The notes below the pieces were generated by a model. The model was not told the origin of the DNA and did not search any database. It was given only the letters and a program-made list of their open reading frames with translations. Below, in pieces: positions 1,589 to 24,816 of a DNA stretch of 52,326 nt. Location of the stretch: the NCBI GenBank assembly GCA_947624515.1, contig CANQKN010000003.1, positions 1 through 52,326 of the forward strand, read 5' to 3'. The position numbers and the translations under genes were made by a program. This DNA comes from an uncultured Bacilli bacterium (GTDB lineage Bacteria > Bacillota_I > Bacilli_A > RF39 > UBA660). How positions within the stretch are numbered: the stretch's first letter is position 1; each line of letters opens with the position of its first letter.

Positions 1589-2497
1589 ATGCACGATTTT
1601 ATTTATGATATTGATTCTATTTTAGATTCTAAACAAGTACTTTCAAATGATTTTGGTCGTTATTCCAAAATTTATTTAATGACTACGGAGAATATAAAAG
1701 GTTTTTTGCAGCAATATGATCTAACCAATCGAAATATATTAACAGTTACCGGTAGTGGTGATCAGATGTTAAATGCTTTTTTAATGGGTGCTAGGAATGT
1801 TACTTGTTTTGATATAAATCCTCTTACTTTTTTGAATGCGGAATTAAAAAAGGCTGCTCTTTCCACTTTATCTTATTCAGAATTTATTTCCTTCTTTTTT
1901 CAAGAATTTCAAAAATTTTTAGATGTTCATCTATATGAAAAAATTAGATTAGAACTAAAAGATGAAGCTCTAGTTTTCTTTGATTATTTATATTCAAAAT
2001 ATAGAAGTCAAGAAATTTTTGATAAGATTTACTACCGATTTCATACTCCATTTGAGAAAATGAAAACTCTTAATTTCTATTTAGAAGAATCTCATTATGA
2101 AAAACTATCTGATATTTTAAAGAAGAAAAAAGTCACCTATCTTGAAAGTAATATTACTACTTTACGGGAATATCTAACCGGACAAGTCTTTGATATGATT
2201 CTGCTTTCTAATATTAGTGATAGTATTGATGATATTTGGAAAGAAGATGCTTTGAAAAATTTTAAAAGATTTATTCACTCTTTGAGTAAAATTTTAAAAT
2301 CTAATGGTACTATACAAGTTGGTTATATTTATGATTATTATTCTTATCATACTTTTCATTCCTTTCACAATAAAAAGGAAAGGCAAACTATTTTTACAAC
2401 AGATGAGTTTCATACTTCTTTCGTAGAAGGTTTTTCTTATCATGATCAAAGTGATGCTATTATTACATTTCAAAAAATTAAAAAAAGAAAGAGTTAG
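1589..2497 (+). CDS. SAM-dependent methyltransferase-like protein (DUF3419-like)
   Basis: Glycine-rich SAM motif ILTVTGSGDQMLNAFLMGARNVTCFDINP and a later FDMILLSNISDS. Confidence 0.6.
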   Translation: MHDFIYDIDSILDSKQVLSNDFGRYSKIYLMTTENIKGFLQQYDLTNRNILTVTGSGDQMLNAFLMGARNVTCFDINPLTFLNAELKKAALSTLSYSEFISFFFQEFQKFLDVHLYEKIRLELKDEALVFFDYLYSKYRSQEIFDKIYYRFHTPFEKMKTLNFYLEESHYEKLSDILKKKKVTYLESNITTLREYLTGQVFDMILLSNISDSIDDIWKEDALKNFKRFIHSLSKILKSNGTIQVGYIYDYYSYHTFHSFHNKKERQTIFTTDEFHTSFVEGFSYHDQSDAIITFQKIKKRKS

Positions 2498-2646
2498 TGC
2501 TGATTTATTTTTATAGAAGCCAAAAGACTCTTTTTCTTGTGTGAAAATTGTAGTCAAAATAAAGTGCGACTTATCTTTTTTTAGAAAATCTTTACTTTTC
2601 ATTTTATTTTTGATAAAATAAATACCCAATTAAGAGGGGAATTATT

Positions 2647-3798
2647 ATGAATTATAATTGGGATATTGAAAAATTAGAAAAGCAGAAAAAAATCATTCAA
2701 AATTGTATTAGAATAACCAAAGGGTTAACCAAAGAAGAAATTCAATTTTTAAAAAGTAGTATTAAACAAATTAAAGAATTAGAAGATATTTTATTTAATA
2801 GATATCAATTGAACCAACCTCGGAAAATTCATTATATGGACTCCCATAAATTATTACCTATTAAAACTTATCAAGATTTTCAAAGCATTCCCTACTATAT
2901 CAAAGAAACTATTCTAAAAGCAACCAGGTTATTTAAAGATTTAGATGATACTTATGATAATATTCCTTTACCAATATTTAATGTTAGTAATCAAGATTTA
3001 GTAGAGATGTCATATGATTTCTATTCTCTATTACCGGATTCTTCTTTTCTAAAGGACTTTATTAAATATACAGATCCAAAAAAGCATCTGTTACAATTTA
3101 AAAATGCTCAAATGAAAGATATATTTGGAGGACAAACTTATATTTTTTATTATCCAAAGTATATTCCTTATTTTTTAATTTATAGAAGACATGATATTAG
3201 TGATTTTTTATCCTTAAATCATGAAATTAGTCATGCCATTATGTATCAACATGATACTTATACAGTAGATAAAAAAAATCATTATTTTTTAACGGAATTA
3301 GAAGGGTATTTTTTTGATTATCTTTCTATTCAATATCTAAAAAAATTTTATTCGGAAGAGGTAATTAATCAATTAGAGTATGATCGTATTACTGCTGTAT
3401 TAGAAGATTTTGCTACTATTTTTATTGACGATACTGCTATTCAATTATTTGAAAATAATAGAAAGATTACCCTTCATTCTATTAAGAATCGTTTTCAAAA
3501 ATGGAATCTTCCTTTTTCTATAAATTCTGTTCTTTTAAAAGAAACTTTATGGGAAGATGTGAGATATCATAGCTGTTGTATCCTTTCTCTTTTAACCAGT
3601 TTAGATTTAGAAATGATTTATGAAAAAGATCCTGAATATGCTTTCTATTTATTTGAAAAAATTAGAAATAATAAAACTGATCATATATTTCAAAATCTAG
3701 AAAAAAATGGAATCAGTTTTATGGGAGAAAGGGAAAACTATGATCCTTTTCAAAAGAAGATACAGTGGATTAATCAATTAGGAGAAAAAAGAAAATGA
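2647..3798 (+). CDS. Putative zinc metallopeptidase (gluzincin, M3-like)
   Basis: HExxH motif LNHEISHAIMYQH followed by ELEGYFFDYL. RBS GAGGGG upstream. Confidence 0.55.
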   Translation: MNYNWDIEKLEKQKKIIQNCIRITKGLTKEEIQFLKSSIKQIKELEDILFNRYQLNQPRKIHYMDSHKLLPIKTYQDFQSIPYYIKETILKATRLFKDLDDTYDNIPLPIFNVSNQDLVEMSYDFYSLLPDSSFLKDFIKYTDPKKHLLQFKNAQMKDIFGGQTYIFYYPKYIPYFLIYRRHDISDFLSLNHEISHAIMYQHDTYTVDKKNHYFLTELEGYFFDYLSIQYLKKFYSEEVINQLEYDRITAVLEDFATIFIDDTAIQLFENNRKITLHSIKNRFQKWNLPFSINSVLLKETLWEDVRYHSCCILSLLTSLDLEMIYEKDPEYAFYLFEKIRNNKTDHIFQNLEKNGISFMGERENYDPFQKKIQWINQLGEKRK

Positions 3799-3860
3799 TT
3801 CTATATTTTATAGAGTTACTAATAAAATAATTATTGACTTAATTCTTTATCATCATTTAA

Positions 3861-4332: not shown

Positions 4333-5094
4333 TTAAACCTCAATTTCTTCTAAGGATTCATATTGTTTCGCTACGAGAATTTCTTTATGAATATGATTTT
4401 TTTCTAAAAGATTCTTCGTTGTTTCTAAAGCTAATTCTTCCGTATTATTGTTTTCACTAATATGGGCTAAAATAATTTTTTTGGTTTTTTCTCCTACAAT
4501 ATCTAATAAATAGTTTGCAGTTGTTTCATTGGAAAGGTGACCTTTATCACTAATTACCCTTTGCTTTAATAGATAGGGATAAGGTCCTTCCATTAGCATT
4601 TCTTCATCATGATTACTTTCCATAATATAAATTTCTCTATTTTTTAATAAAGGAAAATATTTTTCATTAATGTAACCAGTATCTGTAATATAGACAAGAG
4701 AATGATTATTTGCCTCTAAAACAAAGCCTACTCCTTCAACATCATGAGAGATTCTAATTAAATCGATTTTTAAATCTTCCAAAACGAAAGAGTTATCATA
4801 GATGAAAATATTTTCTTTCGGTATTCTTTTAGATAATTCCTCTATCATTTCTTTTAGTGCATATACTTTTAAATTAGTTTTTTTCACTAAAGATGCCAAC
4901 CCTTTAATATGATCACTATGCGTATGAGTTATAAAAATAGCATCTAATTCTTTCGGAGAAACACCAACTGTTTCTAATTCGGTTACTAGATATTGATAAG
5001 TTATTCCCATATCAATCAAAATTTTTAATTTTTCGGTTTGGATAAAAGTACTATTTCCTTTTGATCCACTTGCTAATACTTTTACTTTCATCAT
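4333..5094 (-). CDS. MBL-fold metallohydrolase, YycJ/WalJ family
   Basis: VLASGSKGNSTFIQT...IFITHTHSDHIKGL; adjacent to rlmH as in other Firmicutes. Confidence 0.9.
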   Translation of the reverse strand: MMKVKVLASGSKGNSTFIQTEKLKILIDMGITYQYLVTELETVGVSPKELDAIFITHTHSDHIKGLASLVKKTNLKVYALKEMIEELSKRIPKENIFIYDNSFVLEDLKIDLIRISHDVEGVGFVLEANNHSLVYITDTGYINEKYFPLLKNREIYIMESNHDEEMLMEGPYPYLLKQRVISDKGHLSNETTANYLLDIVGEKTKKIILAHISENNNTEELALETTKNLLEKNHIHKEILVAKQYESLEEIEV

Positions 5095-6653
5095 CTAAAA
5101 ATGGTAGTATATGGATTTAAAGCTACCCCTCCTCTAAATGGATAACCACTATATAAACCAAAATGTAGGTGAACTCCTGATGCAAAACCACTTCTACCTG
5201 CAGTACCAATCTGATCATTTGACATAACAATATCACCATATTTTTTCGTACGAGAAGCCATATGAGCATACATCGTATAGTAACCATTACTGTGTTTGAT
5301 AATAATATAATTTCCGTTGGTACTATTATAAGAAGATTCTACTACAACACCATTATTCACAGCTTTAATTGCACTTCCATAAGTAATACCGGAAATATCA
5401 AGTCCCTCATGAAGTTTACCCCAACGCCATCCATAAGGACTACTGATTGTATATGGAGTCATAGTAGGCCATACCCAACTACCAATACCAACTGGTACAT
5501 CAATATTAGGATTATAAACTTGATACTGTTTCGTTCCTCTAGTTACTATCTTATTAATAGTTGGAACTAATTCTACAGTAGATCCGGGAACGGTAACAAT
5601 TTCTTTAATTTCACCATTTACTAACTGAATTTTTTGAGTAATTAATTCTAGTCCATCTTGACCTTCTTGTTCTACTCTCTCATACCCTACATATTGAGTA
5701 TCATCATTTTTATATATAGTTTCCATTGTTTTTACTTTTTTAGAAACAACATGTTCCACTTCTACTAAATCAAAAACAGGAGATATTAATCCTAATTTTA
5801 CTACTTGTCCAGGATATAATAGGTCTTGGGCTGTTTTAAAATTAGTATTAGCAATTAAAAATTCTTCGGTTGATAATTTATTATTATAGGAAATTTCTTC
5901 TATTGTATCCCCTGCTTTTACAATATAAGATTCCTGTTCTTTGGTAGTTCCAAAAAGTAAATATTTACTTAATTCCTCTTCTGTTTGATAGATCATATCA
6001 CCTACGGGAATACGAGTTTCCTTAATCATAATATTATTAGCAATACTGATATTTTCAATAATAGTTCCCTCTTCATTTTCCTCTAATTTTTTTTGAGTAT
6101 CATTTAAGTAACTATCATATTGATCACTATCAATGAAAGCAGTTATTGTTTTTCTAACAGAGTTAGTAAAAATATCTTTGTCTAATACATATAAGGTAAT
6201 ATCAGGAGTTGTAGTAACTGTCCCATCTTCATTTGATTTTTCAATACCATTAATTTTTATCTCATATCCATCAACAGTAAAAGAAGAAGGACCCATAATA
6301 TCTTCTATTTTTTGGTAAATTTCTTCTACCGAAAGAATGGTTTCATTATAAGTAATTTCTTTGATAATATCTAAATCATTGGGAGCATATACTTTATCAA
6401 CTTGATACTTTTCTTTTAATTGTTGTTGTTTTCCATCAATATAATCTAATAATTCTTTTTCTGACTCAATTACGCCAATTGATTTACCTGATAAATAAAT
6501 ACGATATAACTGGCGTGGAGTATTTGTATTTGTATAGATTCCAACAATTTTTGCATAAATTGTATTGGGATTTGATCCAATAAAGATAATTGCACATGAT
6601 AGTAAAAATGCTATTATGACAATTAAAATTTGTTTTTTACTCATTTTTTTCAC
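5091..6653 (-). CDS. M23 family metallopeptidase with LysM and G5-like domains
   Basis: LysM (YIVKAGDTIEEISYNNKLSTEEFLIAN), G5-like region (VSKKVKTMETIYKND...), C-terminal M23 (SPYGWRWGKLHEGLDISG...VHLHFGLY), N-terminal signal anchor. Confidence 0.9.
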   Translation of the reverse strand: MKKMSKKQILIVIIAFLLSCAIIFIGSNPNTIYAKIVGIYTNTNTPRQLYRIYLSGKSIGVIESEKELLDYIDGKQQQLKEKYQVDKVYAPNDLDIIKEITYNETILSVEEIYQKIEDIMGPSSFTVDGYEIKINGIEKSNEDGTVTTTPDITLYVLDKDIFTNSVRKTITAFIDSDQYDSYLNDTQKKLEENEEGTIIENISIANNIMIKETRIPVGDMIYQTEEELSKYLLFGTTKEQESYIVKAGDTIEEISYNNKLSTEEFLIANTNFKTAQDLLYPGQVVKLGLISPVFDLVEVEHVVSKKVKTMETIYKNDDTQYVGYERVEQEGQDGLELITQKIQLVNGEIKEIVTVPGSTVELVPTINKIVTRGTKQYQVYNPNIDVPVGIGSWVWPTMTPYTISSPYGWRWGKLHEGLDISGITYGSAIKAVNNGVVVESSYNSTNGNYIIIKHSNGYYTMYAHMASRTKKYGDIVMSNDQIGTAGRSGFASGVHLHFGLYSGYPFRGGVALNPYTTIFR

Positions 6654-7998
6654 CCTTATTATCCTTAGTCATATTTAGAAATGTACTGGTACTTTTTTTA
6701 AATAATAAATCGATTTTTCCAGTTGGTCCATTACGATGTTTTCCAATAATTAATTCACTTAAACTTGGATCGGCTGCTTCCCCTAACTCTTTTGTATTTT
6801 GATAGTAGTCATCACGATATAATAAAGCAACAATATCGGCATCTTGTTCAATAGAACCTGATTCTCTTAAATCACTCATTTTTGGCCTTTTATCTTCACG
6901 AGATTCTACACCACGAGATAACTGGGCTAACGCAATGACTGGGATTTTTAGTTCCATAGCCATTTTTTTTAGATTTCTAGAAATATCCGTAATTTCTAAT
7001 TGACGATTATTTCCATAGTTACCACCCATTGTTAATAATTGAAGGTGATCGATAATTACTAAATCTAATCCCTCTTCACTAGTTGCTAGACGACGGCATT
7101 TGGATTTGATATCTCCTACTGTTACTCCTGCATCGTCGCAAATGTAAAGTTTAGCTTGTGCTAATTGACTTTTAGCTTCTGTTATTCTTTTCCAATCTTC
7201 ATTTAAAAGATTACCACTTGTTAGTTTGGTACCTTCAATTTGTCCTAAAGAAGAAAGCATACGATTTGCTAACTGTTCAGCACCCATTTCCAAAGAGAAA
7301 ATAGCCACTGTTTTATCAGTATTTATAGCTACACTGGTAGCAAGATTTAAAGCAAAGGCAGTTTTACCCATGGCAGGACGCGCTGCTAAAATCACTAGTT
7401 GATTTTCATGTAATCCTGAAGTTAGACGATCTAATTCATACCAACCTGTAGGAATTCCGGTAATTTCTCCTTTTGAAGATGCTAATTTTTCTAAATTTTG
7501 TTGCACATCATTTAAAATATTTTGAATCGTTCTAAATTCAGAAGAACGACGATTTTTAATAATTCCTACAATTTTACTTTCTACTTGATCTAAAATATCG
7601 GTTACTTCGCCATTATGTTCATAAGCTAATGTTGCAATTTCTGTAGAAGTATCTATTACGCTTCTTAACATATAATTATCTTCTACTATTTTTATGTAAT
7701 ATTCAATATTAGCAGCAGTTGGTACAACATTTATTAATTCTGTTAGATATTCTACACCGCCTACATCATTCAACTTTTTGGTTTGATTTAATTCTGCTGT
7801 AATTGTTGTTAGGTCAATAGGTACCTTTTTATCATGTAAATCAGCAATAGATTGAAAAATAATTTTGTGTTTATCTAAATAAAATGAATCAGCAAACAAT
7901 TTATCTGTTGCTTTTTCTATTGCACTTGGCGATAGAAACATTGCTCCTAATACAGATTGCTCTGCTACAATATCATTAGGAATGGTTTTAATAGCCAT
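6637..7998 (-). CDS. dnaB: Replicative DNA helicase DnaB
   Basis: MAIKTIPNDIVAEQSVLGAM...ILAARPAMGKTAFALNLA...SGSIEQDADIVALLYRDDYY. Confidence 0.97.
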   Translation of the reverse strand: MAIKTIPNDIVAEQSVLGAMFLSPSAIEKATDKLFADSFYLDKHKIIFQSIADLHDKKVPIDLTTITAELNQTKKLNDVGGVEYLTELINVVPTAANIEYYIKIVEDNYMLRSVIDTSTEIATLAYEHNGEVTDILDQVESKIVGIIKNRRSSEFRTIQNILNDVQQNLEKLASSKGEITGIPTGWYELDRLTSGLHENQLVILAARPAMGKTAFALNLATSVAINTDKTVAIFSLEMGAEQLANRMLSSLGQIEGTKLTSGNLLNEDWKRITEAKSQLAQAKLYICDDAGVTVGDIKSKCRRLATSEEGLDLVIIDHLQLLTMGGNYGNNRQLEITDISRNLKKMAMELKIPVIALAQLSRGVESREDKRPKMSDLRESGSIEQDADIVALLYRDDYYQNTKELGEAADPSLSELIIGKHRNGPTGKIDLLFKKSTSTFLNMTKDNKGEKNE

Positions 7999-8011
7999 AT
8001 GATCACCTACT

Positions 8012-8452
8012 TTATTTTACTAATTGTATTTTTAATTCTGCTTTTACCTCTTTGTATAGTGTAATTATTACTTTATGGAATCCTAATGATTGTAAAGAGG
8101 TTGTTAATTCAATTTGTTTTTTATCTATTTTATATCCTTTTTTTAATAATTCTTCTTTGATTTGTTTAGGACTAATACTTCCAAATACTTTATCTTGTTC
8201 TCCTGTTTTTACTTTAAAAGTAAGAGTTATGTTCTCTAATTGTTGTTTTAGTTCATTAGCTTGTTTTGTTAAGGCTTCTTCTTCTTTTCTTTTTGTTTCT
8301 TTTTCTGCTTTTACTTTTTCTAGATTTTTTTCTGTTAGAGGAGTTGCATAACCATTTTTAATAAGGAAGTTTTCAGCATATCCATCTTTTACTTCTTTGA
8401 TATCTCCTTTTTTTGCTTGTTTCTTTAAGTCTTTCACAAAGATTACTTTCAT
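8012..8452 (-). CDS. rplI: 50S ribosomal protein L9
   Basis: [44 protein letters not shown]. Confidence 0.97.
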
Positions 8453-8462
8453 AGAATCCCTC

Positions 8463-9419
8463 CTATTTTAATAATTTTTTTAATTCTTCAGCTGCTTGAT
8501 GCAAAGTAATATCTTTTATTTGGGCAGCAGCATCGTGATTATCACCACCACCACCAAATGTTTCAGCTATTTTACCAACATTGATGGTTCCTTCGCTCCT
8601 TGCACTTAATCCAACTCCTCCATCAGTTCTATTTCCTAATACAAAGGATGCTTCAATATTATTAAATTGAAGAAGGGTATCCGCAATTTTAGCAAGTTCT
8701 TCTCGTTTGTATGTAATTTTATCAGGAGCAATGGATAATGCATATTTATCATTAATTACTTTTACTTCTGTAATGACTTTTTGTCTTATTATATAATCTT
8801 TAATGTCTTGTTTCAAGAAATATTGAACTTTTCTAGGAATTGCACCTTGTTCAGCCAAATAATAAGCAGCTTGATATGTCTTTGTAGTAGTCTTTACAAT
8901 AAAATTATTAGTATCCAATACAATTCCTGCTAAAATGAAGGTTGCTGGTTTTGGTTCCAGTTTTACATGATAAGCTTCTATTAAATTCGTTACAATTTCG
9001 CAAGTACTAGAAGCTTGTTCTTCAATAATTCGATCAGTATGGGAAATTGTTTGATCTGTTTCTTGATGATGATCTAATATGATAATATTTTTAAAATAGT
9101 GAAGGACTTTATCACTTTGTAGTAATTGAGCTTTATTGGTATCTACAATGATTAAAATACTTCTCTTGGAATAGTAGTTGGGAATATTACTACTTTGGAT
9201 GATATGATAGTTATTTCCTATTTCTTTTAATACCTTTTCTACACCTAGTTCATGTTTTTCATCATCGATAATAATATAATTTTTCTTATGAAAATGATTA
9301 CTAATTGCTGATACACCAATACAAGCTCCTAAAGCATCTAAATCAAGATTTTTATGAGCCATAATAAAAATATTTTTACTAAATTTTATTTTTCTTTTGA
9401 TCTTTGTTTCTATTTTCAT
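8463..9419 (-). CDS. DHH/DHHA1 phosphoesterase resembling the C-terminal half of GdpP (c-di-AMP phosphodiesterase)
   Basis: [16 protein letters not shown] motif ILDHHQE, GdpP-like [36 protein letters not shown]. Next to rplI/dnaB as gdpP is in Firmicutes, but without TM/PAS/GGDEF regions. Confidence 0.85.
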
Positions 9420-9500
9420 CAGATTCACCATTTCCTATCAACATTATACAACAAATCCTAGTAGATGTCCAAGTAAGACATCATTTTTAGATGAAAAAAT

Positions 9501-9522
9501 AGAACTTGTGAAAGTTCTATCT
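9501..9522 (-). terminator. Intrinsic terminator after the 9517..10776 gene
   Basis: atagaacttgtgaaagttctat hairpin, T-rich on the minus strand. Confidence 0.55.
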
Positions 9523-10776
9523 TATTTTTCTTGGTTCTTCTATCGTTAAACTTAATTTTTTGATGTCTTCTTCGGAAATATAAATTACTTTACCGCCTGG
9601 TGGATTGATTTTGTTATCACCATAAGCAATCCAAATGGCTTTAACTTCTGTTTTTGGCATAGATGCACAACCATCTGTAAAAATTATTTTATTTTCAGCT
9701 TTTCCTGTAAAAGCATTCACTGCTACCTCAAAGTCAGTTCCACCTCTTCCTATAATAGGAAAATTATCTATATCTTCTTGGGTTTTTATTACTTGAAAGC
9801 CATAGAATTTTGTATCAAAACAACCAACACTAATCTCTGAAGTTTGAAGAATTGTTTTACATTCTCTCAAAGTGCTTCTAACTATGTTATCACTTACTGA
9901 ACTGCTTGTATCGATCACAATCTCTGTTTTTGGTTTCGGCTGTTCTTCTATATGTGGTATTACTACTCCATATTCTATGGTAGCATTTATAAATGACCAG
10001 TCTTCTTCTATTTTAGTAGCATTATAAAGTAATTGTTTCCAATTTAATAAATTACTGGCTTCTCCTATATTATCTAATTTTAGATTTTGTTCATCAGTAT
10101 TATTCCCAGCATTTATCATTTGATTTACCAATTGTTTTCTTAGTTTTTTCAGTTTTTGTTTTAATTCTTGTCTATTTTTTTGGAATATTTCTTTTTCGGA
10201 ACAGTCTTTTCCATTAGGTAGATCTTTTGTTTCTTCTTGATACCAACCACTATGGGTATCATGTCCTACATCATATTGTTTAAAATCTTGAGAGTTTTGG
10301 TATTCAGGAGAATGATTGTTTTTCTCTTTCTGATTATTTTTTGAATTTTTTTGTTTTTGCTTTTGATTCATTAATTTTTGATAATATTGTTCAGCACTAT
10401 AATTAATAGCTTCTGGAATATCAACTAATCCATCTATCAGTTTAAAACCATCTTTTTTTAAGTTTGTATTTATTACAGCATCTGTTGCTATATTCCAAAT
10501 TTTAGGATTTCTATCTTTACTTCTTTCATGATGCTTTAAATGGATATGCATTAGTTCATGAGCAAATAAAAAGGTTCTTTCTTCACGATCTAGGTTAGAA
10601 ACAAAATCAGGGTGATACTTTATTTTTGTTTTACTTGCTGCTGCTGTTGGATTTCCATTAAAATCAAAACAATTATAATCTGGGGCTATTTCTATATTAG
10701 CTAATGTACTTCCAAGAAAACTATATGTGAATAAAACATCTCTTATAATTTCTTCTATATTTATTTCACTCTTCAT
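9517..10776 (-). CDS. DUF2201-type putative metallopeptidase with C-terminal VWA-like domain
   Basis: FLFAHELMHIHLKHHERSKDRNPKIWNIATDAVIN (HExxH-type) and VIDTSSSVSDNIVRSTLRECKTIL...GRGGTDFEVAVNAF (VWA-like MIDAS residues DTSSS and T). Confidence 0.85.
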   Translation of the reverse strand: MKSEINIEEIIRDVLFTYSFLGSTLANIEIAPDYNCFDFNGNPTAAASKTKIKYHPDFVSNLDREERTFLFAHELMHIHLKHHERSKDRNPKIWNIATDAVINTNLKKDGFKLIDGLVDIPEAINYSAEQYYQKLMNQKQKQKNSKNNQKEKNNHSPEYQNSQDFKQYDVGHDTHSGWYQEETKDLPNGKDCSEKEIFQKNRQELKQKLKKLRKQLVNQMINAGNNTDEQNLKLDNIGEASNLLNWKQLLYNATKIEEDWSFINATIEYGVVIPHIEEQPKPKTEIVIDTSSSVSDNIVRSTLRECKTILQTSEISVGCFDTKFYGFQVIKTQEDIDNFPIIGRGGTDFEVAVNAFTGKAENKIIFTDGCASMPKTEVKAIWIAYGDNKINPPGGKVIYISEEDIKKLSLTIEEPRKIR

Positions 10777-10784
10777 AACATCAC

Positions 10785-11189
10785 CTACATTACAGCAACT
10801 AAGGAAGAAATCGTATCATTCATTGTTTCCTGATTAGATTTTCCAGCAATGATTATCACACAGTTTTTTGGTAGATTAAATACATTGACTTTTCTATATT
10901 TTAATAATTCCCCAAATTTTAGTTGTTCTTCTTTTGAAATACTAGATAGATCCTTAATTACTAAGAAGCAATAATTCTCATTCTCATATTGGTTTAATTC
11001 TTGATACCATGATGGTGGTAAAAATTCTTTTTCTTCATAATGCCCTGTTAATTCATTGATGTTGATATCTGCTGGTAAAATGACACTATTTTTATCAAAT
11101 ATATCTGATTGAATATTTTCAAGCAGAATAGGTACATAATGAGTCTTAATATAAGCTTCTATCATTTCTAATCTATCTTGATTTTTCAT
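10785..11189 (-). CDS. Uncharacterised protein resembling the Walker B-sensor 1 part of an AAA+ fold, without a P-loop
   Basis: YCFLVIKDLSSISKEEQLKFGELLKYRKVNVFNLPKNCVIIIAGKS resembles IHILFLDEITNVKSNYILNLAYNLILDRELDGKWKLPENARIVVAGNE of the neighbouring ATPases. No GxxxxGK[ST]. Confidence 0.5.
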   Translation of the reverse strand: MKNQDRLEMIEAYIKTHYVPILLENIQSDIFDKNSVILPADININELTGHYEEKEFLPPSWYQELNQYENENYCFLVIKDLSSISKEEQLKFGELLKYRKVNVFNLPKNCVIIIAGKSNQETMNDTISSLVAVM

Positions 11190-13047
11190 TTTTCGTCTCT
11201 CTTTCTAATTTTTCTAAGCGATGATTATCTCCTTGGGTCCATAAGTTATCAAATAAAGATAAGGTTTCTTCTCCTAATTTTTCTACAAATTCTCTTACAG
11301 TTTCTATGTGCTCTTCATCTACTTGTGATAGGGCTACTGCTGTTACTGCTTTTTCACTAAGATTCATATTTAAATCTTCTTCTGTATAATTTCCATTTAA
11401 AACGTCTTCTAATGTAATTACTCTTTGATTACAGAAGGCTATAAACTCTCTTGTTAGTGCTTCTCCTATTAAAGCTCTTAACATTTCTGGTTTTCCTGTT
11501 GTATATAACATCTTAGATGCCATCTCCCATTTCCTTGGATCGGCATTTGGCTTCTTTCCTGTATATGTCGTTCTTAATGCAGCTTCTCTTCTATAATTGA
11601 TAAAAGCATAAATCGCTGGATGGATCTTCTTTTCGACTTTTCCTTCTTCATAGTCTATCTTTCCATATTCTTCTATTGGTGTTGATGCCCAATTTAACCA
11701 ATCTTCTACTGTTGTATGAATATAAATATGAGCTAGTCTATTATATAATGGCTGTGGTATTTCTATTGCTGATATCGAATCTTCTACTTCATTTCCTGCT
11801 ACTACGATTCTAGCATTTTCTGGTAGTTTCCACTTTCCATCTAATTCTCGATCTAAGATTAAATTATAGGCTAGATTTAGGATATAATTTGATTTTACAT
11901 TCGTGATTTCATCTAAGAATAAAATATGAATTTTATCTTTTTCTTTTTGACATTTTTCTTCTAAACGCTTTAACCAGGTTGGTTTTACATCTATCATTTC
12001 TCCTGTTTCCTGATTATAGACACTTTTTCCTGCAAAGGAATCGGGATTTTGCGTGATCATATAGATGATTTCACAGTCTGGATCAAGTTCTTTTATACGA
12101 GCACTTTTTCCATCACTTGGTAAACCATGTAGAAAGGGGGCAATTCCACTTTTAATAGCTCCTATTATTATTTCTTCTTCGGTTACTTGATCAAAATTCA
12201 AGTTATATAGATTTTTCTTATTGAGTTCTTCTTTTTGTTTTAACATAGCTGTTCTTATATTTTCATTTTGGATATCTCTAATAAAATGAGTATTTAAAAA
12301 CCAGTACAAATTTGTTTGGGTAAAATCTCCTTTATAATTTTCTTCTAAATTAAATTGTACACCTGCAAATAAAATATCTTCTGATATAATTCTATCTTTT
12401 TTCAAATCTCCTAACCATTTAATAGGTTCTACTTCTACCCATACATAATCACCATTTTGATATTTTTTTTTATTAGATAAAGTAAATTCTATTTCATCAT
12501 AAAAATTTGCTTTTACTCTTACATATTTTTTCCCTTGATATTCATATTCAATATGTAATTGAGGTTCAAAATCTCCTTTGTCATCTTTTCTAGAATCTGT
12601 TGTATAGGTTTTTCCCGTCTTTTTTAGAGTTCCTTGATAATATTTTCTTTCTAATACTCTTTGCATATTTTTACCTACTACTGTTTGAGGATATTCTCCA
12701 TACTCTACTTCTAGAATGTTATCATGTGCCAACATTTGATTTGAACAGATGGAAGCGATGGAAGAGTACAGTAAAACTGGACGGCAACCAATATCACGTA
12801 GGCTAGCATTGTAGTTATAACTATTACCAGCACAATTAACAACACGCGCATTATTACCTTCATCGTCTGTTTTGGTCCAATACTGTCCTGTTCTATCTTT
12901 TAAAGCTTTAGATGCATTTCCTCCTAATAATATCGCAAAACCGGTTATTCTAGCACTAGCTCCTCTTTGTTTAAAAATATCTAATCGATTAGTATCATTG
13001 CCATAGATTTGATCTCTTGTTAATATATCAACAATTATATTATTCAT
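11173..13047 (-). CDS. MoxR-type AAA+ ATPase with N-terminal C-type-lectin/DUF6273-like modules (copy A)
   Basis: P-loop GLPSDGKS, Walker B IHILFLDEITN, sensor region ARIVVAGNE. N-terminal ARITGFAILLGG...YWTKT...GCRPVL and GEYPQ...NGDYVWVEVEPIKWL...ILFAGVQFN. Start trimmed to MNNIIVDIL by comparison with copy B. Confidence 0.85.
   Translation of the reverse strand: MNNIIVDILTRDQIYGNDTNRLDIFKQRGASARITGFAILLGGNASKALKDRTGQYWTKTDDEGNNARVVNCAGNSYNYNASLRDIGCRPVLLYSSIASICSNQMLAHDNILEVEYGEYPQTVVGKNMQRVLERKYYQGTLKKTGKTYTTDSRKDDKGDFEPQLHIEYEYQGKKYVRVKANFYDEIEFTLSNKKKYQNGDYVWVEVEPIKWLGDLKKDRIISEDILFAGVQFNLEENYKGDFTQTNLYWFLNTHFIRDIQNENIRTAMLKQKEELNKKNLYNLNFDQVTEEEIIIGAIKSGIAPFLHGLPSDGKSARIKELDPDCEIIYMITQNPDSFAGKSVYNQETGEMIDVKPTWLKRLEEKCQKEKDKIHILFLDEITNVKSNYILNLAYNLILDRELDGKWKLPENARIVVAGNEVEDSISAIEIPQPLYNRLAHIYIHTTVEDWLNWASTPIEEYGKIDYEEGKVEKKIHPAIYAFINYRREAALRTTYTGKKPNADPRKWEMASKMLYTTGKPEMLRALIGEALTREFIAFCNQRVITLEDVLNGNYTEEDLNMNLSEKAVTAVALSQVDEEHIETVREFVEKLGEETLSLFDNLWTQGDNHRLEKLERETKNEKSR
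11224..12152. repeat. Direct repeat, copy A: 929 bp with no mismatches seen against 13115..14043
   Basis: Line-by-line comparison at a constant offset of 1891 bp. First mismatches are at 11223 (g/a) and 12153 (t/g). Confidence 0.95.
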
Positions 13048-14971
13048 CTTGTTTATCACCTAGCTTTTTTTCTTTAGCTTTGACATGATTCTTTATTAAT
13101 CTTTCTAAGCGATAATTATCTCCTTGGGTCCATAAGTTATCAAATAAAGATAAGGTTTCTTCTCCTAATTTTTCTACAAATTCTCTTACAGTTTCTATGT
13201 GCTCTTCATCTACTTGTGATAGGGCTACTGCTGTTACTGCTTTTTCACTAAGATTCATATTTAAATCTTCTTCTGTATAATTTCCATTTAAAACGTCTTC
13301 TAATGTAATTACTCTTTGATTACAGAAGGCTATAAACTCTCTTGTTAGTGCTTCTCCTATTAAAGCTCTTAACATTTCTGGTTTTCCTGTTGTATATAAC
13401 ATCTTAGATGCCATCTCCCATTTCCTTGGATCGGCATTTGGCTTCTTTCCTGTATATGTCGTTCTTAATGCAGCTTCTCTTCTATAATTGATAAAAGCAT
13501 AAATCGCTGGATGGATCTTCTTTTCGACTTTTCCTTCTTCATAGTCTATCTTTCCATATTCTTCTATTGGTGTTGATGCCCAATTTAACCAATCTTCTAC
13601 TGTTGTATGAATATAAATATGAGCTAGTCTATTATATAATGGCTGTGGTATTTCTATTGCTGATATCGAATCTTCTACTTCATTTCCTGCTACTACGATT
13701 CTAGCATTTTCTGGTAGTTTCCACTTTCCATCTAATTCTCGATCTAAGATTAAATTATAGGCTAGATTTAGGATATAATTTGATTTTACATTCGTGATTT
13801 CATCTAAGAATAAAATATGAATTTTATCTTTTTCTTTTTGACATTTTTCTTCTAAACGCTTTAACCAGGTTGGTTTTACATCTATCATTTCTCCTGTTTC
13901 CTGATTATAGACACTTTTTCCTGCAAAGGAATCGGGATTTTGCGTGATCATATAGATGATTTCACAGTCTGGATCAAGTTCTTTTATACGAGCACTTTTT
14001 CCATCACTTGGTAAACCATGTAGAAAGGGGGCAATTCCACTTTGGATAGCTCCTATTATTATTTCTTCTTCGGTTACTTCATCAAAATTCAAGTTATATA
14101 AATTTTTCTTATTGAGTTCTTCTTTTTGTTTTAACATAGCTGTTCTTATATTTTCATTTTGAATATCTTTAATAAAATAAGTATTTAAAAACCAGTACAG
14201 ATTTGTTTGAGAAAAATTCCCTATATAATTAATTTCCTGATTAAATTGTACACCTGCAAATAGAATATTTTCGGCTATCGCGATATTATTTTTACTATCT
14301 ACTAACCATTTAATAGGTTCTACTTCTACCCAAATATAATCACCATTTTGATATCTTACACCATTAGATAGAATAAAGTTTTTTTCATCATAACTAGCAT
14401 TTGCTTTTACTCTTACATATTTTTTTCCTTGATATTCATATTCAATATGAGATTGAGGTTCAAAATCTGCTCCTTCTTCCTCATAGTTTCTAGAATCCGT
14501 TGTATAGGTTTTTCCCGTCTTTTTTAAGGTTTCTTTACAAAGTTCCATTTCTAATACTTCTTGCATATTTTTATCTACTGGTTGTTGAGGATATTCCCCA
14601 TACTCTACTTCTAGAATGTTATCGTGTGCTATCACTTGATTTGAAGAGATGGAAGAGATGGCAGAGTATGATAAAACGGGACGACAGCCAATATGACGTC
14701 TGTTAATATTAGTGCTGTTAAAATAACCAGAATAGTTAACAACTTTCACGCAAATACTTCCATCAGCTTTTTTGGTCCAATACTGTCCTGCTCTATCTTT
14801 TAAAGCTTTCGAATTATTTACATGGTCAATTTCAGATGCAACTCCTCCTAATAATATCGCAAAACCAGTTATTCTGGCTCTAGCTCCTCTTTGTTTAAAA
14901 ATATCTAATCGATTAGTATCATCACCAAATATTTGGTCTTCTGTTAGTATATCAACAATTATATTATTCAT
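13040..14971 (-). CDS. MoxR-type AAA+ ATPase with N-terminal C-type-lectin/DUF6273-like modules (copy B)
   Basis: Same architecture as copy A, with a near-identical C-terminal ATPase part and a diverged N-terminal part. Probable RBS GGGGAG upstream. Confidence 0.85.
   Translation of the reverse strand: MNNIIVDILTEDQIFGDDTNRLDIFKQRGARARITGFAILLGGVASEIDHVNNSKALKDRAGQYWTKKADGSICVKVVNYSGYFNSTNINRRHIGCRPVLSYSAISSISSNQVIAHDNILEVEYGEYPQQPVDKNMQEVLEMELCKETLKKTGKTYTTDSRNYEEEGADFEPQSHIEYEYQGKKYVRVKANASYDEKNFILSNGVRYQNGDYIWVEVEPIKWLVDSKNNIAIAENILFAGVQFNQEINYIGNFSQTNLYWFLNTYFIKDIQNENIRTAMLKQKEELNKKNLYNLNFDEVTEEEIIIGAIQSGIAPFLHGLPSDGKSARIKELDPDCEIIYMITQNPDSFAGKSVYNQETGEMIDVKPTWLKRLEEKCQKEKDKIHILFLDEITNVKSNYILNLAYNLILDRELDGKWKLPENARIVVAGNEVEDSISAIEIPQPLYNRLAHIYIHTTVEDWLNWASTPIEEYGKIDYEEGKVEKKIHPAIYAFINYRREAALRTTYTGKKPNADPRKWEMASKMLYTTGKPEMLRALIGEALTREFIAFCNQRVITLEDVLNGNYTEEDLNMNLSEKAVTAVALSQVDEEHIETVREFVEKLGEETLSLFDNLWTQGDNYRLERLIKNHVKAKEKKLGDKQDE
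13115..14043. repeat. Direct repeat, copy B: partner of 11224..12152
   Basis: As for copy A. Confidence 0.95.
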
Positions 14972-15110: not shown

Positions 15111-15135
15111 AAGATGAACTTTTTTGGTTCATCTT
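15111..15135 (-). terminator. Terminator at the end of the rpsF-ssb-rpsR operon
   Basis: aagatgaacttttttggttcatctt hairpin overlapping the rpsR stop, T-rich downstream on the minus strand. Confidence 0.6.
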
Positions 15136-15349
15136 ACTTAGTATAAGGTAATAAAGCAATTGCACGAGCGCGTTTGATTTGTTCTGCTATATGCCTTTGA
15201 TGTTTTGCACAAGCTCCTGTAATTCTTCTTGGTAAAATCTTACCTTTATCGTTAATATATCTTTTTAAAGTTTCTACATCTTTATAATTGATATCTTTTC
15301 CTGTACACATGTAGCATACTTTTTTCTTTTTCTTATAAAATTCTGCCAT
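15134..15349 (-). CDS. rpsR: 30S ribosomal protein S18
   Basis: [71 protein letters not shown]. The supplied ORF starts too far upstream. Confidence 0.96.
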
Positions 15350-15365
15350 AGTCTTTCCTCCTTCT

Positions 15366-22083: not shown

Positions 22084-22974
22084 TTAATCATCTAATCCCA
22101 TAATTTCTAAAATTCTATTTAAATCATTGAAATTAACAAAATGTAGTTCTACTTTATTGTTTTTTATTTTTACTTTTGTTCCAAATTTTTCTGATAATTC
22201 TTCTTCTATATTTTTATATTCATTTGGTTTTTGTTCATGTCTTATTTGGATATTTTTTCTTTCTAAAGTAGTATCATGAGATAATTCTTCTATTTCACGA
22301 ACACTTAATCCATCTACTACTACTTTTTCAGCAAGCTCTACTACTTTATTATTATCTTCTATTTTACTAAGAACACGAGCATGACTCATAGAAAGTTTTC
22401 CGGATATAATCATATCTTTTACTTTTTCTGGTAATGTTAATAATCCTAGCATATTGGTAATATGACTTCTACTTTTTCCTAATCTATGGGCTAATTCTTC
22501 TTGAGTTAGTGATAATTCTTCTAATAATTTTTTATAAGCTAAAGCTTCTTCTAACGCATTTAAATTTTCTCTTTGTAGATTTTCTAACAATGCGATTTCC
22601 ATCATATCTTGATCTGAAAAATTTCTAATAATAGCGGGGATTGTTTCCTTTCCTGCTATTTTAGATGCTTTTACTCTTCTTTCACCTGCTATGATTTCAT
22701 AACCTTTAATACTAGGCTTTACAATAATTGGTTGAAAGACACCATGTTCTTTAATAGATTCTGCTAATTCTTTTAAGGCATTTTCATCAAAATTTTTTCT
22801 TGGCTGATAAGGATTACTTCTTAATTCTGATACAGGAATTTCAACAATTTCTTCATTGGTAGAAGAATTAATGATTTTTTCTTCCATTTTTTCATAATCA
22901 AGAGGTTCATTATTAAATAATTCTTCTAATCCTCTTCCTAGAGCCTTTCTTCTAGATGTTTCCATTTCTCTCAA
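22084..22974 (-). CDS. parB: Chromosome-partitioning protein ParB/Spo0J
   Basis: ALGRGLEELFNN...VSELRSNPYQPRKNFDENALKELAESIKEHGVFQPIIVKP...IIAGERRVKASK; downstream of parA. Confidence 0.95.
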   Translation of the reverse strand: MREMETSRRKALGRGLEELFNNEPLDYEKMEEKIINSSTNEEIVEIPVSELRSNPYQPRKNFDENALKELAESIKEHGVFQPIIVKPSIKGYEIIAGERRVKASKIAGKETIPAIIRNFSDQDMMEIALLENLQRENLNALEEALAYKKLLEELSLTQEELAHRLGKSRSHITNMLGLLTLPEKVKDMIISGKLSMSHARVLSKIEDNNKVVELAEKVVVDGLSVREIEELSHDTTLERKNIQIRHEQKPNEYKNIEEELSEKFGTKVKIKNNKVELHFVNFNDLNRILEIMGLDD

Positions 22975-23830: not shown

Positions 23831-24816
23831 TATTTATTTTTTTCAATTTTTACTAGGATTTGATAAGTATTTTCAAAATCCATTTCTTCCATACGAATAT
23901 CAAAACCTTTTGTTTCTAATTTCGTTACGGTATTTTTGATTTCACTAATAGCATCTTTTAATGTATAAGAACGGCTGCTTCTTAATAATTGATCTATTTT
24001 TTTCATACTAGAATCTTCTTCATTTATAGTGTTATTGATACTCTTAGAATCGATTTCTTCTTCTAATTCTTCTATTACATCATCCTCATCTAGACTAGGA
24101 AGTGGTAGATCATCAAGAATTTGATCTGAATCATCATATTGATCAGGATTTTTTACTTCTATTTTAGGGCCAGCTTCTGATAAGATGCTATTTTCTTGTA
24201 CTTCAGGTAAAACAGGCTCTCCTTTTAGCACTCTAATTTCATTATCTAAATCCCTTACAGTCATACGATTATTAATAATTTTTCTTAACATATTAATTTG
24301 TTCTTCACTACTATCTAAATTTAATAAACTTCTTGCATGACGTTCTGAAATTTTATCATAAAGAAGTGCTTCTTGTACTTCATCAGGTAAGGATAATAAT
24401 CTCATTTTATTAGCAATGGCTGCTTGGGATTTTCCTAGTGTACGACCTAACTCTTCCTGAGTCATAGAATCTAACTCTAATATTTTTTGATATGTTCTTG
24501 CTTCTTCAATTGCAGTTAAATCTTTTCTTTGAAGATTTTCTAAAAGGGCAACTTTAGAAGCTTCTTTATCATCTAAATTACGGATAATAGCTGGAATTTT
24601 AGTTAATCCTGCTATAACAGATGCTTTATATCTTCTCTCACCTGCTATAATTTCATATTTATCTCCTATTTTTCTAACAATAATTGGTTGAATAATACCA
24701 TGTTCTTTGATAGAATTAGCTAATTCGCTTAGATCGTTTTCATTAAATACTTCTCTTGGTTGAAAACGATTTGGAATAATATCATCTAAATATAATTCTA
24801 CTACTTCTTTATCCAT
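23830..24816 (-). CDS. noc: ParB-family protein, likely nucleoid occlusion protein Noc
   Basis: Second ParB paralog: GERRYKASVIAGLTKIPAIIRNLDDKEASKVALLENLQRKDL...TQEELGRTLGKSQAAIANKMRLLSLP...ISERHARSLL. Located next to rsmG. Noc-type palindromes occur in the window. Start trimmed to MDKEVV (RBS AGAGGG). Confidence 0.8.
   Translation of the reverse strand: MDKEVVELYLDDIIPNRFQPREVFNENDLSELANSIKEHGIIQPIIVRKIGDKYEIIAGERRYKASVIAGLTKIPAIIRNLDDKEASKVALLENLQRKDLTAIEEARTYQKILELDSMTQEELGRTLGKSQAAIANKMRLLSLPDEVQEALLYDKISERHARSLLNLDSSEEQINMLRKIINNRMTVRDLDNEIRVLKGEPVLPEVQENSILSEAGPKIEVKNPDQYDDSDQILDDLPLPSLDEDDVIEELEEEIDSKSINNTINEEDSSMKKIDQLLRSSRSYTLKDAISEIKNTVTKLETKGFDIRMEEMDFENTYQILVKIEKNK

What the first reader, a model, noticed from the sequence alone, without database searches (positions are those of the whole stretch)
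9517..14971. Four-gene MoxR-AAA+/VWA-metallopeptidase cassette with lectin-like sensor modules, in the core oriC neighbourhood
Seen: same-strand, overlapping or tightly spaced genes (13040..14971, 11173..13047, 10785..11189, 9517..10776) sit between a gdpP-like gene and rpsR, among housekeeping genes. They encode two AAA+ ATPases (GLPSDGKS, LFLDEITN), a small AAA-like protein, and a protein with a FLFAHELMHIHLKHH HExxH motif plus a VWA-like domain. Known: MoxR ATPases often pair with VWA proteins, including DUF2201-type ones, as chaperone-like modules. Inference: the N-terminal modules (YWTKT...GCRPVL; NGDYVWVEVEPIKWL...ILFAGVQFN) look like C-type-lectin/DUF6273 folds. Fused directly to MoxR cores and duplicated in tandem, they could form a recognition-coupled remodelling or defence-like system. 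I do not know of a described system with this architecture.
Basis: partly seen in the sequence, partly recalled or inferred. Interest (0 to 1): 0.8.

Follow-up and report, generated by a model that had tools for sequence, protein, structure and literature searches.

The report
Retroelement-diversified lectin-ATPase-protease gene cassette
Next to ribosomal genes, this uncultured gut bacterium carries a four-gene machine that joins a protein-remodelling motor and a metal-dependent protease to a lectin-like sensor, and in several relatives a dedicated reverse transcriptase rewrites part of that sensor, which suggests a self-diversifying recognition (probably defence) system whose copy here has lost the rewriter and kept two variants.

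Summary
The four genes are real, co-directional and overlapping: two 624/643-aa AAA+ proteins (A, B), a 134-aa protein C, and a DUF2201 HExxH/VWA metallopeptidase (D). The order [N-module–AAA+]n–(C)–D recurs in about 50 uncultured Bacilli/Clostridia loci, so it is an accessory family, not unique to this window. The N-module is a DUF6273-type C-type-lectin domain whose halves are in swapped order, so its hypervariable strip lies inside the gene at about codons 70–105. In six relatives (L036, L037, L038, L042, L132, L149) a dedicated reverse transcriptase lies upstream of the AAA+ gene, preceded by a template repeat. In the five loci counted in full, 52 mismatches to the strip fall at template adenines and 8 elsewhere (Fisher 4e-22). 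These RTs form one clade (100/100); RT remnants sit in the same place in four other loci. The window's genome (89% complete) shows no RT or template. Its two copies differ at 13/17 template-adenine codons versus 57/254 elsewhere, while 929 nt of the AAA+ core are identical: a DGR-less derivative holding two sensor variants. Closest known: DGR-linked MoxR–vWA conflict systems, where the variable lectin is reported on vWA or other target proteins. A defence function is inferred, untested.

The parts
13040..14971 (-). Gene A: permuted DUF6273/C-type-lectin N-module (res 1-278) fused to MoxR-like AAA+ core (res ~290-636)
11173..13047 (-). Gene B: tandem paralogue of A (ATG at 13047; a GTG at 13059 is also possible)
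14138..14971 (-). N-module of A (AlphaFold2 mean pLDDT 94.8, pTM 0.93)
14669..14767 (-). Strip in A (res 69-101) homologous to the DGR variable repeat of relatives
12769..12867 (-). Strip in B homologous to the DGR variable repeat; 13/17 template-adenine codons differ from A
13115..14043 (-). 929-nt AAA+ core block of A, identical in B
11224..12152 (-). 929-nt AAA+ core block of B, identical in A
10785..11189 (-). Gene C: P-loop-less fragment homologous to the Walker-B-to-sensor-1 part of the AAA+ core; likely non-catalytic adaptor or ring subunit (inferred)
9517..10776 (-). Gene D: DUF2201_N metallopeptidase fused to DUF2201 VWA-like domain
10546..10560 (-). HExxH of D (HELMH)
9898..9912 (-). 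MIDAS DxSxS of the VWA-like domain of D
15134..15358 (-). rpsR, upstream border of the accessory slot (context)
8463..9431 (-). DHH-DHHA1 gene (GdpP/NrnA-like), downstream border of the slot (context)

Best explanation
The cassette is a cytoplasmic recognition-and-remodelling machine of the MoxR-VWA type. SHOWN by sequence: an N-terminal lectin-like module with a hypervariable strip is fused to an AAA+ motor with intact Walker A/B, sensor and arginine-finger residues; its operon partners are a P-loop-less AAA fragment and a VWA-metallopeptidase. SHOWN in relatives: a dedicated DGR (template repeat, then RT, 50-90 nt upstream of the target gene) whose template differs from that strip almost only at adenines. 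SHOWN for the window: no RT or template in the 89%-complete genome; two gene copies whose sensor strips differ at the DGR-type positions while their cores are identical. INFERRED: A and B form (mixed) AAA+ rings; ligand binding by the variable face, probably of a foreign or phage protein inside the cell, triggers ATP-driven remodelling through C and the VWA domain, which unleashes or delivers substrate to the D peptidase and gives a defence or abortive response. INFERRED: the window lineage lost the DGR and keeps diversity as a fixed two-sensor repertoire, with recombination homogenising the shared core.
For: Conserved gene order in about 50 loci. DUF6273/C-type-lectin match with permuted order: first half matches profile 87-170, second half 3-53; the VR half matches the C-terminal end of ordinary DGR targets in the same genomes; high-confidence model. 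TR-VR pairs with adenine-specific mismatches next to a DGR-type RT (LGNQSSQ): L036 12 A / 1 other, L037 9/2, L038 10/1, L042 10/0, L132 11/4 (pooled 52/8, Fisher 4e-22), plus L149 10/1 over 60 nt, from an independent collection. Near-identical cassettes L036/L037/L038 differ at 7-10 of 17 template-A codons but 2-10 of 283 other N-module codons. Cis RTs monophyletic 100/100; remnants at the same position in G051, L043, L046 and a truncated copy in L044. Window: no RT (best E 0.03), no template, A/B differences 13/17 vs 57/254 (p 9e-6), identical core. The same constant-core/variable-sensor pattern recurs in L051, L082, L048, L058.
Against: No experiment and no PADLOC match; no known toxin or effector other than the putative peptidase. 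D could be a processing factor. The identical 929 nt in A/B come from a draft assembly (72 contigs) and could partly be an assembly artefact. The RT could lie in the missing 11% of the genome; the template was sought with the strip of B only. RT-less loci also show a variable strip, so selection on a lectin surface alone may explain part of the pattern. The site test treats codons as independent. L049's pair shows no excess (1/17). RT state is scattered on the core tree (5 changes), so repeated gain or transfer is not excluded.
Confidence: 0.62

Rival explanations
1. Diversified client adaptor for a housekeeping or surface-related protein-processing machine: the variable lectin module selects endogenous or environmental clients, and MoxR-VWA-peptidase remodels or processes them; not defence.
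For: MoxR-VWA pairs act as assembly chaperones; the jumbo-phage MoxR plus metallopeptidase-vWA pair is proposed to assist virion assembly and processing (PMC7824862). The locus sits among housekeeping genes and has no PADLOC match.
Against: Patchy distribution (about 8 of 145 relatives with a fused N-module+AAA gene), deletion in a congener and adenine hypermutation of the sensor fit conflict with changing ligands better than a fixed client.
Confidence: 0.25
2. Mobile-element or prophage cargo: a phage-derived MoxR/DUF2201 module with a DGR-diversified tail-type lectin, decaying in the chromosome.
For: Core and D match phage families phrog_1297/1314; 107 phage records match, the best at 24-30% identity over the core; DUF6273 lectins are DGR targets in gut phages (PMC10743442); one complete RT-TR-cassette lies on an IMG/VR contig (L149); several RT remnants.
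Against: No phage record covers 80% of the fused protein; in the window, L033, L043 and L046 the cassette sits by rpsR; catalytic motifs and reading frames are intact in the window.
Confidence: 0.18
3. The window lineage never had a DGR: A and B diverged by ordinary duplication with relaxed or positive selection on the lectin surface, and the DGR was gained separately in other lineages.
For: No trace of RT or template in own genome; dS is also raised in the strip (0.41); RT labels need 5 changes on the core tree.
Against: Cis RTs are one clade, including the same-family G051 remnant; loci bearing the RT or its remnant fall on both sides of the window lineage; A/B differences concentrate at template-adenine codons.
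Confidence: 0.25

Closest known systems
VMAP-type MoxR-vWA ternary conflict systems with DGR (Kaur et al. 2020, PMC7159879; Dore et al. 2024, PMC10907252)
   Same: MoxR AAA+ plus vWA protein, a C-type-lectin sensor diversified by a linked DGR, peptidase components
   Different: There the variable FGS/CLec is mostly fused to the vWA protein or sits on separate targets, with the variable region C-terminal, mainly in multicellular prokaryotes. Here it is N-terminal on the AAA+ motor itself, permuted and internal, with a DUF2201 metallopeptidase-VWA and a P-loop-less AAA subunit; no VMAP was identified; most host genomes are ~1-2 Mb uncultured gut Bacilli and Clostridia
Jumbo-phage MoxR plus metallopeptidase-vWA pair (PMC7824862); phrog_1297/phrog_1314
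   Same: Same core pair: AAA+ ATPase next to a metallopeptidase-vWA protein
   Different: No lectin N-module and no DGR link found; proposed virion-assembly role; 24-30% identity over the core only in the best phage matches
DUF6273 phage receptor-binding proteins (Tentaclins, PMC10743442) and other DGR lectin targets
   Same: DUF6273/C-type-lectin fold, DGR-variable strip; 5'-located variable regions are noted there as rare
   Different: Here the domain halves are swapped and fused to an AAA+ core in a cytoplasmic operon
NorQ/NorD and other MoxR-VWA chaperone pairs
   Same: AAA+ fold (Foldseek hits to NorQ) next to a VWA partner gene
   Different: No sensor module, no peptidase domain, specific metalloenzyme client (from general knowledge)

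Membership tests
Diversity-generating retroelement (cassette family, seen in relatives) | DGR-type RT ([LI]GxxxSQ motif, YxDD) beside the target | tested here: met
   L036, L037, L038, L042, L132, L061 (cut by contig end): LGNQSSQ or LGNQTSQ, one clade 100/100; L149 RT 59-63% identical to these
Diversity-generating retroelement (cassette family, seen in relatives) | Template repeat matching the variable repeat with mismatches at template adenines | tested here: met
   52 A vs 8 non-A mismatches over five pairs, p 4e-22; sixth pair 10/1
Diversity-generating retroelement (window copy) | RT and template present in own genome | tested here: not met
   Best RT E 0.03; template pattern finds only gene B itself; genome 89% complete
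DUF6273 / C-type-lectin domain | Profile match above the gathering score | tested here: inconclusive
   Members L079 and L077 pass; 19 of 61 match weakly or well; window A/B do not
DUF6273 / C-type-lectin domain | Canonical order of the fold | tested here: not met
   First half matches profile 87-170, second half 3-53 (weak, E 0.07): permuted; order-dependent Foldseek finds nothing at E<0.001, BFVD top hit is a DUF6273 protein at E 0.06
MoxR-type AAA+ ATPase | Walker A/B, sensor 1, arginine finger, AAA_5/AAA_3-like fold, VWA partner | tested here: met
   Invariant G319/K325, D390-E391, N430, R448; AAA_5 in 13/36; NorQ fold hits; D adjacent. MoxR versus other AAA+ clades was not resolved by a tree
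DUF2201 VWA metallopeptidase | DUF2201_N with HExxH plus DUF2201 VWA with MIDAS | tested here: met
VMAP ternary conflict system | VMAP protein plus MoxR plus vWA | tested here: inconclusive
   No third large VMAP-like gene among the four; C is a 134-aa AAA fragment; no specific VMAP profile was run
Anti-phage defence system | Protection from phage | not testable with these tools
   No PADLOC match; needs an experiment

The most novel reading that the evidence does not exclude
A DGR that diversifies the AAA+ motor subunit itself through an internal, circularly permuted lectin domain, feeding a VWA-metallopeptidase: an anticipatory, self-rewriting intracellular immune receptor in small-genome gut Bacilli, which in some lineages (the window) is replaced by a fixed repertoire kept by duplication and core gene conversion.
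Probability: 0.42. Interest if true: 0.86.

Novelty: new variant of a known kind. Interest (0 to 1): 0.7.

Why it matters
A global survey reports DGR variable regions typically at protein C-termini, explained by the need for intergenic cis elements (PMC8144416). Here a permuted lectin puts the strip near codon 70-105 of a ~640-codon gene and couples it directly to an ATPase and a protease. That makes the idea of DGR-based anticipatory immunity testable on a compact operon in gut bacteria outside the multicellular lineages where it was proposed, and offers natural RT-intact, RT-decaying and RT-free states of one system.

Tried and rejected
Defence-family lookup gave nothing. Foldseek of the N-module against PDB and BFVD gave no significant hit, explained by the permuted order. 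A hand-permuted copy of the window N-module did not reach DUF6273, so the permutation claim rests on other family members. An RT or template in trans in the window's genome: rejected as far as the 89% assembly goes. Trans targeting by other DGRs in the same genomes: a partial match only, L079 strips vs a template on L114 with 8-9 A but 4-5 other mismatches (that scan kept only the best place per job, so cis pairs were masked by self-matches). 'Ubiquitous housekeeping MoxR-VWA operon': rejected by patchy distribution and empty sites. Window-specific oddity: rejected by conservation. Whole-genome download was not available.

Full report
1. What is there. Four co-directional, overlapping or abutting genes fill the gap between rpsR and a DHH-DHHA1 gene. 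A (13040-14971) and B (11173-13047) are paralogues: N-modules about 73% identical in protein, then 929 nt of AAA+ core with no difference at all, then diverging tails. C (10785-11189) aligns by profile with the Walker-B-to-sensor-1 part of the A/B core and lacks the P-loop (hhalign E 4e-7). D (9517-10776) is a DUF2201 metallopeptidase-VWA protein with HExxH in 44/47 and MIDAS in 47/47 homologues.

2. It is a family. A genome-collection scan returned 51 loci from uncultured Bacilli/Clostridia. Most show [N-module-AAA+]n, then C (absent in a Clostridia-rich clade), then D. Some have several tandem copies (L034, L040, L045, L048, L051, L058, L082). Among 145 relatives 23 match at all and about 8 have a fused N-module-AAA+ gene. 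Most congeners without it have rpsR and the DHH gene adjacent, and G003 keeps 245 nt matching the D end and its downstream gap, joined to the rpsR side: a deletion scar.

3. The N-module. 19 of 61 members match DUF6273, a domain with C-type-lectin resemblance (PMC10743442). The halves are swapped: residues ~8-100 match profile 87-170, residues ~220-264 match profile 3-53, the latter weakly. The variable half matches the C-terminal end of ordinary DGR targets in the same genomes. AlphaFold2 gives pLDDT 94.8 and pTM 0.93; order-dependent Foldseek finds nothing significant, as expected for a permuted fold.

4. The retroelement. RT-family hits are common in these genomes (24/37), and several are DGRs with other targets. 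But one RT clade (100/100) sits 50-90 nt upstream of the N-module-AAA+ gene, with a template 110-180 nt further upstream. Template and strip differ at adenines: 52 A vs 8 other mismatches over five loci (p 4e-22); a sixth, from a viral-contig collection, shows 10 vs 1. Near-identical cassettes from different samples differ mainly at these codons. Remnants or truncated RTs lie at the same place in G051, L043, L046 and L044.

5. The window copy. No RT (E 0.03) and no template were found in its genome. A and B nevertheless differ at 13 of 17 template-adenine codons against 57 of 254 other N-module codons (p 9e-6). The reading is loss of the DGR after past diversification, with two variants kept and the core homogenised by recombination. 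The core-identical, sensor-divergent pattern also occurs in L051 (100% over about 900 nt vs 87%) and, over shorter stretches, in L082, L048 and L058. Caveat: draft and metagenome assemblies.

6. Mechanism. Shown: domain make-up, intact catalytic motifs, operon, template-directed variation in relatives. Inferred: ring assembly, ligand-triggered remodelling through the VWA domain, release or feeding of the D peptidase, defence outcome. The absence of an obvious signal peptide on A or B (sequence reading only) argues for an intracellular ligand.

7. Known kinds. MoxR plus metallopeptidase-vWA pairs are reported in jumbo phages (PMC7824862), and DGR-linked MoxR-vWA conflict systems by Kaur 2020 and Dore 2024. 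In the passages read, the variable lectin there belongs to the vWA or other target proteins, and a global survey reports typically C-terminal variable regions (PMC8144416). Searches of the held library for DGR plus Mollicutes, and DGR plus circular permutation, gave no description of this arrangement; subscription papers are not covered. I file it as a new variant of a known kind.

Noticed in passing
L149 (IMGVR_UViG_3300006217_003178), 4611-9607: A template-RT-target-D cassette on a 40-kb contig of the viral collection; could be a provirus or host DNA called viral.
   Followed up: partly
L013 (G041), 805-2325 and 2335-3825: Two tandem genes encode an N-module; the first has ankyrin repeats in front of it (Pfam), the second was not scanned. 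The sensor is used outside the AAA+ cassette.
   Followed up: partly
L079, 3-5255: Three N-module genes (the first cut by the contig end) followed by an AAA+ gene without N-module, C and D; the two complete strips differ with dN/dS about 3.9 and third codon positions nearly constant.
   Followed up: partly
L045, 3043-8866: Three tandem N-module-AAA+ copies identical or nearly identical at nucleotide level, either recent amplification or an assembly effect.
   Followed up: no
L158 (G007) and L167 (G002), between rpsR and the DHH gene: A different open frame of about 320-340 codons occupies the same slot; the slot seems to host varied accessory genes.
   Followed up: no
L131 (G153): Another DGR-type RT gene lies on the same contig stretch as the rplI and DHH genes of that genome.
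   Followed up: no
window 22721-22815 and 24677-24771: A 95-nt repeat at 78% identity links two neighbouring minus-strand genes, apparently paralogues; products not examined.
   Followed up: no
G146 (L117, L118, L119): Three separate DGR-type RTs with template-variable pairs in one genome, in addition to two N-module-AAA+ genes on a contig too short to show whether an RT is linked (L034).
   Followed up: partly
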